DNA from: Candidatus Mediterraneibacter merdigallinarum
GTDB lineage: Bacteria; Bacillota; Clostridia; Lachnospirales; Lachnospiraceae
Direction of reading: 5' to 3'
Length of the DNA: 33,476 nucleotides
Assembly: GCA_019117305.1 (NCBI GenBank)
Contig: DWZZ01000054.1
Location: 1 to 33,476 of the forward strand
In this document: positions 20,425-25,505 of the stretch, piece after piece
Layout: every line of letters begins with the position of its first letter
Numbering within the stretch: the stretch's first letter is position 1
Position numbers and translations under genes: made by a program
Notes under the pieces: model-generated
Databases searched by the model: none
Told to the model about the DNA's origin: nothing
Seen by the model: the letters and a program-made list of their open reading frames with translations, nothing else

Positions 20425-21225
20425 TCACTGGGTGGCTATGGCTGCAAATTTTGTTGTAACCAGATCATCATATGGAGCGCGCTTTTCCAGTTCTCCGGCG
20501 CTTTCCAGAATATCCTGGAGAAGATCAAAGCTGCTTTCTTCAAAGATCAGATTGCTTTTCCATGTATCCTGATCGTAATAGCGGGTTACGATGGTTGTGA
20601 TGGTTTCCAGATCTGTCTCCGGGAACTGCGGTTCAATAACGGCGGCAATTTCTTCCGGCGAATGAGCCTGCACATAGTCCATTCCTTTCTGAAGAGCATT
20701 TGTGAAACCCTGGATAACATCAGGATTTTCATCAATATAGCTCTGCTTTGCGCTGAAAGCGGTGTAGGGAACATAGCCGCTGTCCTCGCCCAGGGAGGCT
20801 ACCACATAGCCTTTTCCCTCGGATTCAAGAGTTGTGGCGCCCGGTTCGAACTCAACCGTGAAATCCCCCTGGCCCTCTGAAAATGCGGCGGCGGTGGAGC
20901 CGAAGTCGATACTCTGATTGATTTCCAGATCTGTCTCCGGGTCAATGCCGTTTTCTTTCAGAATATATTCAAATACCATTTCAGGCATACCGCCTTTGCG
21001 TCCCCCAAGTACCAGATGGCCTTTCAGGTCTTCCCAGGAGAAATCATCCATTTCTTCCCTTGCCACAAGGAAATTGCCTGCCCGCTGCGTGAGCTGGGCA
21101 AAGTTAACGACATAGTCGGTTGCTCCCTCGTTGTAGGTATAGATGGAAGCTTCAGAGCCCATGAAGCCAATATCGGCCTCACCGGAAATTACAGCGGTCA
21201 TTGTCTTGTCTGCTCCGAACGGGGT
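20425..21225 (-). pseudogene. ABC transporter substrate-binding protein (NMT1/SsuA-like), 5'-truncated by prophage insertion
   Basis: Frame reads TPFGADKTMTAVISGEADIGFMGSEASIYTYNEG..YVVNFAQLTQRAGNFLV; N-terminal signal/lipobox region absent; in-frame TGA at 21226-21228 on the minus strand immediately before recombinase-proximal DNA. Confidence 0.85.
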
Positions 21226-21247
21226 TCACAATTTAGGCAGAGACAGC

Positions 21248-22651
21248 TTAAATAAAGTCAACAAAATCAACGGTATAATCCGGCTTCAAATGGATCTGCC
21301 GGATTGTATTTCGCCAGAAAGCACGCCGGTTTTCCGGGCTGAGGGAATTATATATTGACCGGAAATCTTTCTGCAGGAGATTCTCAATAAAAGTATAATC
21401 CTGTTCCGGTTCCGGGACACTGACTGCAAGCTGCTTTTTCTCCTCTTCCAGTGTATCATATTCCTTACTATAATAGTCCCAGTCTATGCGTCCTTTCTGG
21501 AATAAGATATTCAGACGCTCCATTTCTTTGTCAATCTGTTTTTCTGTCCGGACTTTCGGACTCTCTTTCTTCTTCTGTTTTTTGATATCCTCCACACGAA
21601 TCTTGTATGCTTCAAATTCACGTTCCAGGTTTTCCAGCAGGTAATTCTCAATCAGGTTCTGACTTACCTTGTGCGTATTGGTGCAGATCCGGTCAATCAT
21701 TGCCCGATTGCATCTGTAATAACAGTAGTCCCGCTTTTCTCCGGTCTTCCGATTGATGATCGAGCGGCATCCAGTGCCACATAAGAGCTGGCCGCACACA
21801 GGGCAGCGGATCATCCCGGAGAAATAGTAGATCCTTCCGGAGGGTGTTCGTTTGATGTTTTTGTGGCTGATCTGCTGGATCCGGGCCCAGCGCTCTTCTG
21901 ACAGATAGGCGGGGCAGTATGGAATCCCCCGGTAGGTTCCCTTATAAAATTCACTTGATAGCATGGTTCTGAGCACGCTGTAGGAAAATGTCGGGTCATA
22001 ATTCCGCTGCATGTAGCGGAGAGTTGCCTGCTTTGCCTGATGCTTCTCAAAATAATCATAGAACGCATTTACCATTTCTTCCTGATCAGGGTCTTTGACC
22101 ATACATTTTTTTCCGTCTACAATCCCGACCTTGTAGCCGCGGGGCATGTTTGCACCTCCAAAGATTACTTTACCCTGACGTATTGATGCCTCGTTTACAA
22201 ATTTAATACGTTCGGATGTAGTATCTACTTCATTCTGTCCGATTGACAGTACTACATTAAGCTGCAGCCGGCCATCCCGGGTTTCCATGTTAATGCCGGG
22301 CTCAGAAGCGGATATCCAGTATACACCGTACTCATCCAGAATATCCTGCACTTTGTAGAAGTCAGACATGTTACGAAACCACCGGTCCAGTCGCCAGAAT
22401 AGGATCACGTCAATGTTTCCGGCTTTCACGTCCTCCAGAAGGGCATGGATCGCTTTTCGCTTCTTCAGTTCCTTCCGTGCGGTTTTCCCCTCATCCGCAT
22501 AGACTCCGACCGGAATCATGCCGTGATCTTTTGCATAGCGTGCAAGGTATTCACGCTGGGCTTCAAGGGATTTTCCATGCATGCATTGCTCTGCTGTAGA
22601 GACTCTTATGTAGAGTGCGCAGCGCTTGATCTTTTCAGACAATAATATCAT
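21248..22651 (-). CDS. Large serine recombinase (phage integrase)
   Basis: 467 aa; CALYIRVSTAEQ, LEAQREYLARYAKDHG, ILFWRLDRWFRN, zinc-ribbon CPVCGQLLCG..CYYRCNR, C-terminal coiled coil. True start may be an internal TTG because the SD directly abuts the ATG. Confidence 0.95.
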   Translation of the reverse strand: MILLSEKIKRCALYIRVSTAEQCMHGKSLEAQREYLARYAKDHGMIPVGVYADEGKTARKELKKRKAIHALLEDVKAGNIDVILFWRLDRWFRNMSDFYKVQDILDEYGVYWISASEPGINMETRDGRLQLNVVLSIGQNEVDTTSERIKFVNEASIRQGKVIFGGANMPRGYKVGIVDGKKCMVKDPDQEEMVNAFYDYFEKHQAKQATLRYMQRNYDPTFSYSVLRTMLSSEFYKGTYRGIPYCPAYLSEERWARIQQISHKNIKRTPSGRIYYFSGMIRCPVCGQLLCGTGCRSIINRKTGEKRDYCYYRCNRAMIDRICTNTHKVSQNLIENYLLENLEREFEAYKIRVEDIKKQKKKESPKVRTEKQIDKEMERLNILFQKGRIDWDYYSKEYDTLEEEKKQLAVSVPEPEQDYTFIENLLQKDFRSIYNSLSPENRRAFWRNTIRQIHLKPDYTVDFVDFI

Positions 22652-22817
22652 CTCCCTTATTCATTTGTATGAAAAATAAGTATAAAAATAACAGCCAGAC
22701 TATGAACTGATGTTCTGGATTGTGTGGCTGTACCGAAGATGATACAATATTCCGTGGATAAGGTATCGTATATCTTCGGATATACACAGCTGCTTCGGTG
22801 CGCCAACACTGGAGCAG

Positions 22818-22847
22818 TTGACTTTTTTCAGGTACATTTGCTATAAT
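22818..22847 (+). promoter_or_regulatory. Promoter of predicted antisense RNA (TTGACT-N18-TATAAT)
   Basis: ttgact tttttcaggtacatttgc tataat. Confidence 0.65.
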
Positions 22848-22854
22848 GTACTTA

Positions 22855-22954
22855 ACAGGATAGCCGGAAGGTGACTGCACCTCACCCGTCCCGGCGAAAC
22901 TTAAGATCTACAAAATAGTCGTCAGCTTTTCCAGGGCAGGACGGCTATTTTTTA
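22855..22954 (+). ncRNA. Candidate type I antitoxin antisense RNA (about 100 nt) overlapping the 3' end of a small toxin mRNA
   Basis: Promoter 22818-22847; terminator hairpin aaatagtcgtc (22913-22923)/gacggctattt (22940-22950) plus T-run; no convincing ORF; convergent with toxin ORF 22945-23028. Confidence 0.6.
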
Positions 22955-23028
22955 TGTGTATAATTCAGAACAGCTATGATCAGTAAAGCTATGCTTACAA
23001 TCAGGCTTAATTCTTCATATGTACTCAT
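22945..23028 (-). CDS. Putative holin-like type I toxin (Hol_Tox-like, 27 aa)
   Basis: Reverse-strand translation MSTYEELSLIVSIALLIIAVLNYTHKK*; single TM helix with lysine tail; SD AGAGGGGGTGG; not in the ORF track because of size. Confidence 0.8.
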   Translation of the reverse strand: MSTYEELSLIVSIALLIIAVLNYTHKK

Positions 23029-23179
23029 AAGCACCACCCCCTCTGCAGGATTCTCAGAACGGGTGGGAGCTCGTCCCCGGCTACCCGGTTAAATACGTTA
23101 TTTGGTTGGAATCCCCGGAGCTTACGATTAAGCACCGGGGAAAATAGTAATTTTATACATTCTTAATTCTTGCTAAAAT

Positions 23180-24055
23180 TCATTGAACAGATATGTCAAA
23201 AGTAAATGGAGAAAATTCTAAATTATAGTCATCACTACTTCCCTCGGCATATAACTGAAAATTGGTAGAATTGTCTATTGAAGGAAATACAATTATTCCA
23301 GAGGAAGAAGCGCCGGGCAACAGATCATAGGAAAGTTCCGGATAATTTCCATCATACTTTGATGTGGATGAGGAATCCTGTTCTATTTGCTGTCCGTTCT
23401 GTATAATGCGGATATCATAGGTGTACAGAGAAAATGTATTATCTGAATTATTAGTTTCTGTTATATATACGCGAGTTTCTGCTTCTGCAAATTCAATTTT
23501 ATCAATTTTTAATGTAATATCATGCTGAGTTGCCGTTGCGTTTTCCGGGACAACCTCTTTGATTGTTGGAACTACTGCATCTATATAGGACTGTTTTTCA
23601 ACGGAAACAGCGTCTATCTGAAGAGATGTTAATGTATTACCATATATATTTTCATATTCAAGAGAACCAACTATACGGCCATCAACAGTCACATAATCAT
23701 CAACAGCAAAAACTTCAGTCGGATTGGTGATTCCGAAAATAAAATCATTCGAGGCAGTGGAAGGATCATACCATGCTTGATATACGGAATAGTTATCCTC
23801 GGTCTGGGGACCATTAAAGATTTTACCGGATAATTTCACATACTTTCCGGCATAATCATCAGGAGATGAAAACAGGGATATTATTTCAGAATCTGAAATG
23901 TACTCGGGTTCATCATTTTCAGCATCTATATCTTCTTCGGCACTTTCATTACTTTCGGAAGTACCATCAGATGAGGATTTTGAATCACCAGCAGAACAAG
24001 CTGTTAATGCAGCCATGGATAACATAATCAATGCGACACAAATTTTCTTTTTCAT
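23180..24055 (-). CDS. Prophage-encoded lipoprotein, OB-fold-like central region and DUF5067-like C-terminus
   Basis: 291 aa; MKKKICVALIMLSMAALTACSAGDSKSSSD (lipobox); SPDDYAGKYVKLSGKIFN..DDYVTVDGRIVG (OB-like); C-terminal NNSDNTFSLYTYDIRIIQNGQQI. Confidence 0.75.
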   Translation of the reverse strand: MKKKICVALIMLSMAALTACSAGDSKSSSDGTSESNESAEEDIDAENDEPEYISDSEIISLFSSPDDYAGKYVKLSGKIFNGPQTEDNYSVYQAWYDPSTASNDFIFGITNPTEVFAVDDYVTVDGRIVGSLEYENIYGNTLTSLQIDAVSVEKQSYIDAVVPTIKEVVPENATATQHDITLKIDKIEFAEAETRVYITETNNSDNTFSLYTYDIRIIQNGQQIEQDSSSTSKYDGNYPELSYDLLPGASSSGIIVFPSIDNSTNFQLYAEGSSDDYNLEFSPFTFDISVQ

Positions 24056-24119: not shown

Positions 24120-24578
24120 TTATATCTTTTCCATAACTGCCAGATTCGGGATGAAGTAAATTACATAATTATCTACTTCTGTATATACTCCGTATTTATC
24201 TCGGTAGCAGTCAATGCATTCCTGTAAATATTCTTCTGTTACATCTAACAGTTCTGCAATTTCATGTCTGCTCTGGCATCCGGCACGGAATGCTGTTATA
24301 ATGCCGGTCAGCCCGATCAGTTTGTTATATCCCCACAGACGAGCCTGCCGTTCCTGCTTGCGGTTACGAACATCATTCATGTCAAGGATATTTCCCACTG
24401 ATGTATGATGATGTCCGAGCTCCTCTGCGAGGACACAGGTCTTTTCCGTATTTGTCTCAATGTCTTGGCGGATAGCAATCCGCTTTCCCTTGATTCTTCC
24501 GTTGTTGTATTTCAGGGGCTTTTCCTTTACGATAAGTCCCTCCTGATTAGCTTCATCCAAAAGTGCTTCATAATTCAT
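24120..24578 (-). CDS. ImmA/IrrE-family metallopeptidase
   Basis: 152 aa; AEELGHHHTSVGNI zinc motif; adjacent to XRE repressor. Confidence 0.85.
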   Translation of the reverse strand: MNYEALLDEANQEGLIVKEKPLKYNNGRIKGKRIAIRQDIETNTEKTCVLAEELGHHHTSVGNILDMNDVRNRKQERQARLWGYNKLIGLTGIITAFRAGCQSRHEIAELLDVTEEYLQECIDCYRDKYGVYTEVDNYVIYFIPNLAVMEKI

Positions 24579-24632: not shown

Positions 24633-25109
24633 TTAGAAGTCATCATCATCCATAATGTCATTATCAGATGTGTCTGTGCCTTCTGGTATATTAATGTCAA
24701 TACGGGCGTTGGCGGCGTTCGTATCCAAATGGGATGGCATTTCTACTATATTATCATCACTTCCTTTTTCTCGTTCAGCCAAAGCCTTAGAGCGCTCGTA
24801 TTCCTTTTCAAGTGTGAAATCTACCATTTCTCTGCCGTGAGGATCTAAAAGATGATATTTTTCTAAAAGTTCTTTATCGTCAAGACTTATGACAAGTTCT
24901 GTTAATATTTTGGTCTCATCCTGATATAAGTAATTTGCATCTATATTAAGAATTTCTAATGCTTTCGCTATAGTAGCAATAGTTGGTTCGCGGTTTCCGC
25001 TTTCATATCCTGATAACGTAGATTTAGCTACGCCTAATTTCTCGGCAAGTTGTTCTTGTGTTAATCCTGCCTTTATTCTACTTTCTTTTAACCTATCGTA
25101 AAAAGCCAT
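24633..25109 (-). CDS. XRE-family (cI-like) repressor
   Basis: MAFYDRLKESRIKAGLTQEQLAEKLGVAKSTLSGYESGNREPTIATIAKALEIL; start at 25109 preferred over ORF-track start 25118. Confidence 0.9.
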   Translation of the reverse strand: MAFYDRLKESRIKAGLTQEQLAEKLGVAKSTLSGYESGNREPTIATIAKALEILNIDANYLYQDETKILTELVISLDDKELLEKYHLLDPHGREMVDFTLEKEYERSKALAEREKGSDDNIVEMPSHLDTNAANARIDINIPEGTDTSDNDIMDDDDF

Positions 25110-25133
25110 TATTTTCACCTCTCTTTAAAAAAT

Positions 25134-25274: not shown

Positions 25275-25505
25275 ATGCGAATTGCAGATTTTAATGCACC
25301 GGCAGCGGACAATATATCAAAGCTGATTGAAGAGAAGGGTCTAAAGCAGGTGTATGTTGCACAAAAAGCTGGATATAAGGCGCAGGAATTAAATGATATG
25401 TTAAATGGTCGCCGGCTAATAAAAGCATGTGATGTTCCAAGACTTGCGCTTGCGCTAAACGTAGAGATTAATGAAATCTACGAGTCCGGAAAGAAAGGGG
25501 AGTGA
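25275..25505 (+). CDS. Small HTH protein (Cro-like)
   Basis: 76 aa; ISKLIEEKGLKQVYVAQKAGYKAQELNDMLNGRRLIKACDVPRLALALNVEINEIY. Confidence 0.85.
   Translation: MRIADFNAPAADNISKLIEEKGLKQVYVAQKAGYKAQELNDMLNGRRLIKACDVPRLALALNVEINEIYESGKKGE

What the first reader, a model, noticed from the sequence alone, without database searches (positions are those of the whole stretch)
22855..23028. Unannotated type I toxin-antitoxin module (27-aa Hol_Tox-like toxin and convergent antisense RNA) beside the integrase
Seen: minus-strand ORF 22945-23028 encodes MSTYEELSLIVSIALLIIAVLNYTHKK with a strong SD. On the plus strand, promoter TTGACT-N18-TATAAT (22818-22847) would drive a roughly 100-nt RNA ending at a terminator hairpin (22913-22950) whose stem contains the toxin stop codon. 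This matches the TxpA/RatA and BsrG/SR4 layout in which toxin mRNA and antitoxin RNA overlap at their 3' ends.
Basis: partly seen in the sequence, partly recalled or inferred. Interest (0 to 1): 0.72.

Follow-up and report, generated by a model that had tools for sequence, protein, structure and literature searches.

The report
Prophage toxin with matched antisense RNA
Next to a prophage integrase in a gut Lachnospiraceae genome sits a 27-residue membrane-toxin gene facing a ~105-nt antisense RNA, and the same compact gene pair, with an RNA that Rfam does not describe, recurs in roughly a quarter of the family's genomes sampled and beside phage integrases of unrelated kinds.

Summary
The 27-aa ORF (22945-23028, -) is a member of Pfam Hol_Tox (27.0 bits, cut-off 23.3), the family that also contains the proven type I toxin BsrG. 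On the other strand a near-consensus promoter starts a ~105-nt RNA that ends in a hairpin holding the toxin's stop codon. This is conserved: 91 of 397 same-family genomes encode the toxin, and a covariance model of the RNA alone finds it in 80 of 299 (E<1e-4). The RNA's stems covary strongly, and 74 G-U pairs against 2 A-C show that the antitoxin strand is the one folded as RNA. The toxin is under purifying selection (pN/pS 0.28). Its last two Lys codons and TAG stop double as the antitoxin's terminator tail. The best reading is a type I toxin-antitoxin system used by prophages: in IMG/VR contigs the pair lies directly before the integrase in 17 of 27 cases, with both tyrosine and serine integrases. 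New points are an RNA family absent from Rfam, toxin and antitoxin RNAs that begin with co-evolving matching sequences (-12 to +14), and exchange of the toxin over a constant antitoxin RNA. Transcription, toxicity and neutralisation were not testable here.

The parts
22945..23028 (-). Toxin ORF, 27 aa, Hol_Tox family, one hydrophobic (probable transmembrane) stretch and a Lys-Lys C-terminus
   Evidence: 126 distinct 27-codon homologues, pN/pS 0.28
23034..23041 (-). Shine-Dalgarno GGGGGTGG of the toxin, inside a hairpin
   Evidence: unpaired probability near 0 for most positions in the predicted mRNA fold
23034..23066 (-). SD-sequestering hairpin in the toxin leader (arms 23034-23045 and 23055-23066)
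   Evidence: covarying pairs across 57 leaders
23029..23090 (-). Toxin mRNA 5' leader; its upstream half pairs with the mRNA 3' arm around 22930-22945
   Evidence: predicted fold; cognate pairing energy -16.0 against -14.4 kcal/mol permuted, 0/2000
23097..23102 (-). Toxin -10 box (AATAAC), no proper -35; weak, as in its closest homologues
23112..23141 (.). GC-rich hairpin just upstream of the toxin promoter, probable insulator
   Evidence: hairpins at the same place in homologues, folding stronger than shuffled on average
22818..22847 (+). Antitoxin promoter TTGACT-N18-TATAAT
   Evidence: TATAAT-like box conserved throughout
22854..22957 (+). Antitoxin (antisense) RNA, about 105 nt
   Evidence: model R1 matches 22853-22959 at 99 bits
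22863..22895 (+). 5' hairpin of the antitoxin RNA (GCCGG...CCGGC)
   Evidence: 97-99% of cells paired, strong covariation
22909..22954 (.). Shared terminator hairpin; holds the toxin stop codon; the Lys-Lys-TAG codons form the antitoxin U-tract
   Evidence: terminator recognised on the antitoxin strand in about 120 of 138 modules and on the toxin strand in 93 of 144
22843..22867 (+). Inverted repeat, antitoxin end (-10 to about +14)
   Evidence: cognate matching z 8.1 and 10.5
23077..23101 (-). Inverted repeat, toxin end (-10 to about +14)
   Evidence: cognate matching z 8.1 and 10.5
22787..22820 (+). 14-bp hairpin with a CGCCAA loop and a T-run, directly before the antitoxin -35; probable insulator
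21248..22651 (-). Serine integrase, the gene next to the module (context)
   Evidence: PHROG 95, Pfam Resolvase

Best explanation
This is a prophage-borne type I toxin-antitoxin system. The toxin gene makes a 27-residue hydrophobic peptide expected to insert in the host membrane. A strong promoter on the opposite strand makes a ~105-nt antitoxin RNA that runs into the end of the toxin gene, so the two RNAs are complementary over the shared terminator (about 45-50 nt). On its own the toxin mRNA is held nearly silent: its SD is closed in a hairpin, and its 5' leader pairs with its 3' end. The antitoxin contacts the 3' arm and probably also the leader, and the duplex is degraded, presumably by RNase III. 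Losing the prophage would stop antitoxin supply and free the remaining toxin mRNA, so the module would keep the prophage in place. Shown here by sequence: conservation of both genes, RNA structure, strand, overlap, position beside integrases. Inferred: transcription, toxicity, silencing, decay, and the maintenance role.
For: Toxin above the Hol_Tox cut-off, as is BsrG (34.5 bits). Homologues in 91/397 family genomes; purifying selection, pN/pS 0.28 over 126 ORFs. Antitoxin RNA: 98.3% of cells paired, covariation 0.537 against 0.08-0.17 for slid structures and 0.272 shuffled; from that table and, 74 G-U cells against 2 A-C, which fixes the strand. A model of the RNA alone finds 80/299 family genomes at E<1e-4, and most of 20 such hits inspected, chosen from places the toxin search had not listed, face another short hydrophobic Lys-rich ORF at the same spot. 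Toxin stop is TAG in 130/147 against 134/744 in long frames, as expected if it serves the antitoxin terminator. SD less accessible than with shuffled leaders (0.23 against 0.31). Leader and 3' arm co-evolve. Integrase directly downstream on the same strand in 17/27 viral and 25/76 genome loci. Sub-threshold Rfam BsrG match on the toxin strand (18.1 bits, E 0.03).
Against: No expression or toxicity data. The toxin promoter in this copy is weak (AATAAC, no -35), so the toxin may be little expressed from it. Leader-antitoxin pairing is strong but hardly cognate-specific (108/2000 permutations). Most genome copies are not beside an integrase (51/76), so maintenance of a prophage cannot be the only role. 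Permutation tests ignore relatedness.
Confidence: 0.84

Rival explanations
1. The pair mainly regulates the integrase: transcription from the toxin promoter would reach int, and the convergent RNA and terminator between them act as an attenuator. The peptide is incidental.
For: Toxin and integrase lie on the same strand with the antitoxin promoter between them in every integrase-linked case seen.
Against: The peptide is under purifying selection; 51 of 76 genome copies have no integrase within 700 nt; hairpin 1 is a recognisable terminator before int in 93/144; related RNAs sit against other hydrophobic peptides.
Confidence: 0.08
2. The peptide is a secreted or holin-like antibacterial effector (the family name is holin-like toxin; some relatives are compared with the antibacterial Tmp1) rather than an addiction toxin.
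For: Family annotation; a C. acetobutylicum holin-like toxin is compared with Tmp1 in PMC9045289.
Against: A conserved antisense RNA with co-evolving structure points to tight self-silencing; no export gene recognised among the neighbours scanned; BsrG of the same Pfam family is a proven type I toxin (PMC6562991).
Confidence: 0.04
3. This copy is a decaying module: the antitoxin is intact but the toxin promoter is dead, so it acts only as an antitoxin against related toxins elsewhere.
For: AATAAC -10 box with no -35; no other copy of the toxin found in the held genome, which is 89% complete.
Against: The same promoter variant occurs in the closest homologues (L100, L117, L118), with intact ORFs, SDs and RNA structures; few toxin promoters have a proper -35 (11/147).
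Confidence: 0.12
4. Chance ORF and chance promoter.
For: A single short ORF in one window carries little weight by itself.
Against: All conservation and covariation results.
Confidence: 0.01

Closest known systems
bsrG/SR4 (B. subtilis SPbeta prophage)
   Same: Hol_Tox toxin, prophage-borne, toxin and antitoxin RNAs overlap at their 3' ends, SD sequestered in the toxin mRNA (PMC6562991)
   Different: Toxin 27 against 38 aa; antitoxin ~105 against 180 nt; overlap ~45-50 nt against 100-140 bp; no convincing matched 5' ends at bsrG; Rfam BsrG match only sub-threshold
txpA/RatA (B. subtilis skin element, E. faecalis)
   Same: Grouped with BsrG in one toxin family, 3'-3' overlap, mobile element (PMC3531473; PMC6562991)
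   Different: 59-aa toxin, 222-nt antitoxin, ~120-nt overlap
fst/RNAII (par locus of plasmid pAD1)
   Same: Very compact convergent pair ending in a shared bidirectional terminator, with repeats at both 5' ends (from my own knowledge)
   Different: Fst is another toxin family (only Hol_Tox matched); par repeats are direct, giving complementary RNAs (own knowledge), whereas here they are inverted, giving RNAs with the same sequence
C. difficile type I systems (for example CD2517.1/RCd8)
   Same: Clostridia, prophage-linked, antisense RNA (PMC6563280)
   Different: Toxins of 34-59 aa reported to lack similarity to the B. subtilis type I toxins
TxpA-like ORFs predicted in Clostridium bolteae (Fozo 2010, cited in PMC6563280)
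   Same: C. bolteae is also a Lachnospiraceae (own knowledge); probably this family or a relative
   Different: Only a toxin-homology prediction is mentioned in the review; no antitoxin RNA family. The original paper was not available

Membership tests
Pfam Hol_Tox (PF16935) | Profile score above the curated cut-off | tested here: met
   27.0 bits against 23.3, E 4e-6
Type I toxin-antitoxin system | Short hydrophobic toxin with charged C-terminus, conserved as protein | tested here: met
   Sequence; pN/pS 0.28
Type I toxin-antitoxin system | Antisense RNA gene with its own promoter, complementary to the toxin mRNA | tested here: met
   By sequence, covariation and strand-specific G-U pairs; transcription itself not tested
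Type I toxin-antitoxin system | Toxin inhibits growth when expressed | not testable with these tools
   Needs expression in a laboratory strain
Type I toxin-antitoxin system | RNA neutralises the toxin at the mRNA level | not testable with these tools
   Needs co-expression and RNA decay assays
TxpA/BsrG group | Toxin in the same sequence family | tested here: met
   BsrG scores 34.5 bits in Hol_Tox
TxpA/BsrG group | 3'-3' overlap of toxin mRNA and antitoxin | tested here: met
   Shared terminator, stop codon in its stem
TxpA/BsrG group | Overlap of 100-140 bp | tested here: not met
   About 45-50 nt if the toxin mRNA ends at hairpin 1; no excess of terminators beyond the antitoxin promoter, 12/144 against 13% in controls
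TxpA/BsrG group | Toxin RNA recognised by the Rfam BsrG model | tested here: not met
   18.1 bits against 55
TxpA/BsrG group | RNase III decay of the duplex | not testable with these tools
   Needs RNA half-lives in a strain lacking RNase III
fst/par | Fst-type toxin | tested here: not met
   Pfam scan returns only Hol_Tox
fst/par | Direct repeats giving complementary RNA leaders | tested here: not met
   Repeats are inverted

The most novel reading that the evidence does not exclude
The toxin and antitoxin transcripts are kept alike at their start by selection: the segment -12 to +14 of one matches that of its own partner better than that of other modules (z 8-10), with sharp borders. This would mean a new control principle, such as a toxin leader that mimics the antitoxin's 5' arm so that the two compete for the same strand, one operator shared by both promoters, or a small mobile unit with terminal inverted repeats. 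The antitoxin RNA would be a constant chassis onto which different small toxins are loaded.
Probability: 0.3. Interest if true: 0.7.

Novelty: new variant of a known kind. Interest (0 to 1): 0.55.

Why it matters
[quoted passage not shown] difficile (PMC6563280). This result predicts one widespread, uniform system in Lachnospiraceae, a dominant gut family (27% of sampled genomes, one per genus, with the RNA at E<1e-4). It comes with an RNA family absent from Rfam and a repeated position next to the integrases of unrelated prophages. It supplies a ready covariance model for annotation, a testable account of how gut prophages are held in place, and an unusually rich covariation record for dissecting a toxin mRNA.

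Tried and rejected
(1) I first took the weak toxin promoter for decay of this copy. Close homologues share it, so I no longer prefer that reading; it is kept as a rival. (2) A longer toxin mRNA reading through the antitoxin gene would make the inverted repeat a 5'-3' helix. There is no excess of terminators beyond the antitoxin promoter, so this is not supported. (3) The letter before AGCC matches between partners in 66 of 78 modules (31.7 expected), but I found no complementary strand for it in the antitoxin hairpin; unexplained. (4) The toxin was not found in the phage or plasmid record collections. (5) Structure prediction was not tried because the peptide is under 30 residues. (7) The original Fozo 2010 paper is not held. 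(8) PADLOC finds nothing in the toxin or five neighbouring window proteins. (9) The A2 alignment is out of register between subclasses for the leader-3' pairing, so I tested that by duplex energies instead of pair counts.

Full report
WHAT IS THERE. The window holds host genes up to about 21.2 kb and then a prophage: serine integrase 21248-22651(-), the module studied here, a possible lipoprotein 23180-24055(-), a metalloprotease 24120-24578(-), a CI-like repressor 24633-25118(-), a Cro-like ORF 25275-25505(+) and, further on, RecE/RecT/RusA-type genes. Between the integrase and the lipoprotein the minus strand encodes MSTYEELSLIVSIALLIIAVLNYTHKK behind GGGGGTGG. The plus strand has TTGACT-N18-TATAAT at 22818-22847 and a hairpin, 22909-22954, whose stem includes the toxin stop codon. 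The predicted RNA, 22854 to about 22957, folds better than 198 of 200 shuffles.

FAMILY OF THE PEPTIDE. It scores 27.0 bits in Pfam Hol_Tox (cut-off 23.3). I checked what that family contains: a BsrG sequence, confirmed by a 100% match in phage SPBc2 and by an annotated bsrG in phage Goe14, scores 34.5 bits. So the peptide and a proven type I toxin share one curated family. NCBIfam gives nothing; PHROG 9488, of unknown function, matches.

CONSERVATION. 91 of 397 genomes of the same family hold a homologue. The family is Lachnospiraceae: handles match named contigs by length and position (Blautia sp. An81, Coprococcus catus, Lachnoclostridium An196). Of 437 relatives in named genomes, the 80 returned are mostly Blautia, Mediterraneibacter and allied taxa, with a few records labelled otherwise. 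Among 126 distinct 27-codon ORFs pN/pS is 0.28, so the peptide itself is selected.

THE ANTITOXIN RNA. 57 antitoxin regions were aligned (A1). RNAalifold finds 16 pairs, 13 with double changes. Counted against controls, 98.3% of cells pair, the covariation score is 0.537 (shuffled 0.272; slid 0.08-0.17) and 152 cells carry compensatory changes (shuffled 44). Summing the pair table gives 74 G-U cells; A-C cells, which would be G-U on the other strand, number 2. This shows that the structure is selected in an RNA made from the antitoxin strand. A covariance model built from A1 (R1) scores 99 bits in the window and finds matches at E<1e-4 in 80 of 299 family genomes (my count; 114 at E<=0.01, of which the weakest are probably chance). 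Among 199 other genomes of the phylum only weak matches (E>1e-4) appear. Rfam has no family above threshold here. The nearest is a sub-threshold BsrG match on the toxin strand (18.1 bits, threshold 55, E 0.03).

DUAL USE OF THE TOXIN'S LAST CODONS. The last codons (usually AAG/AAA AAA TAG) are, read backwards, the U-tract and stem base of the antitoxin terminator. The stop is TAG in 130 of 147 modules, against 134 of 744 long open frames in the same loci. The shared hairpin is recognisable as a terminator on the antitoxin strand in about 120 of 138 modules and on the toxin strand in 93 of 144. Beyond the antitoxin promoter, terminators are no commoner than in control pieces. The overlap is therefore probably 45-50 nt.

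THE TOXIN mRNA. The 5' leader contains an SD-closing hairpin with compensatory changes. Over 146 modules the SD region is less accessible than with shuffled leaders (0.23 against 0.31). In the window's predicted fold the leader also pairs with the 3' arm. Across 59 modules cognate leader and 3' arm pair at -16.0 kcal/mol on average against -14.4 for permuted partners (0 of 2000 permutations as low), while a reversed-sequence control shows no difference. Leader-antitoxin pairing is strong but only marginally cognate-specific.

MATCHED 5' ENDS. In the window the first ~25 nt of the two units form an inverted repeat, 84%. Over 145 modules, 25 nt at the start of the antitoxin match the toxin's upstream region at 19.1 of 25 positions on average, 17.2 for non-cognate partners and 11.6 for shuffled sequence. 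Slicing shows the cognate excess only in -12 to -1 (z 8.1) and +1 to +14 (z 10.5), not upstream or downstream. Independent drift from a common repeat would not give a cognate excess, so the two ends co-evolve. The cause is open: RNA competition, a shared operator, or DNA-level homogenisation of the repeats. bsrG/SR4 shows no comparable repeat between its two starts apart from one weak 18-nt pair outside the expected place.

CONTEXT. In IMG/VR contigs 17 of 27 loci with enough sequence have an integrase directly downstream on the same strand, and in genomes 25 of 76. These integrases are of two unrelated kinds, tyrosine (10 of 10 scanned) and serine. The gene on the other side varies: lipoprotein here, Abi_2/AbiD in L100 (whose integrase is 83% identical to the window's), DUF5067, SLH, HsdR-N elsewhere. 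This suggests a portable cassette at the lysogeny end of many phages, next to a cargo slot. Both ends of the module carry hairpins that look like insulators.

TOXIN EXCHANGE. Among 20 antitoxin-model hits at places the toxin search had not listed, most have another short hydrophobic, Lys-ended ORF at the same place, often of the type MVTYSDLFTFVIMLCAVITLV...KK, which falls below the Hol_Tox cut-off. A few have degraded or no ORF. The RNA is thus broader than one toxin type.

MECHANISM. I propose a type I system: toxin mRNA nearly silent by itself, antitoxin in excess from a stronger promoter, pairing at the shared 3' end, duplex decay by RNase III as for txpA/RatA (PMC3531473) and bsrG/SR4 (PMC6562991). 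Shown: both genes conserved, structure, strand, overlap, position. Inferred: expression, toxicity, neutralisation, prophage maintenance.

LIMITS. No transcript data. Start sites are placed by sequence (about +/-3 nt). Permutation tests do not correct for relatedness. The 17/27 and 25/76 counts come from collections and homologue sets that are not random samples.

Noticed in passing
window 20425-21255: An NMT1/SsuA-like substrate-binding protein gene appears to lack its 5' part where the prophage's integrase end begins; probable attachment site inside the gene.
   Followed up: partly
window 23180-24055; L100:2234-3370; L183, L186, L191, L198 upstream ORFs: The gene between repressor side and module is variable cargo (lipoprotein, AbiD, DUF5067, SLH, HsdR-N), possibly an accessory or defence slot next to the integrase-linked module.
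   Followed up: partly
window 22787-22820 and equivalents: Hairpins with a CGCCAA loop: the motif occurs within 90 nt beyond the antitoxin promoter in 28 of 145 modules against 2.8% of background tiles.
   Followed up: partly
L079-L098: The same antitoxin RNA faces a second type of small peptide (MVTYSDLFTFVIMLCAVITLV...KK), below the Hol_Tox cut-off.
   Followed up: partly
L022, L023, L043, L068: Tandem copies of the whole module 285-350 bp apart in one genome; some genomes carry up to seven antitoxin matches.
   Followed up: no
toxin upstream regions: Many toxin promoters read TTGACAATATAATATACTTA, with TTGACA abutting the -10 box instead of at -35 (57 of 147 by a loose pattern).
   Followed up: no
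L172 (record titled Candidatus Mailhella merdavium): A toxin copy in a 4.4-kb contig binned to an unrelated bacterium; probably misbinning.
   Followed up: no
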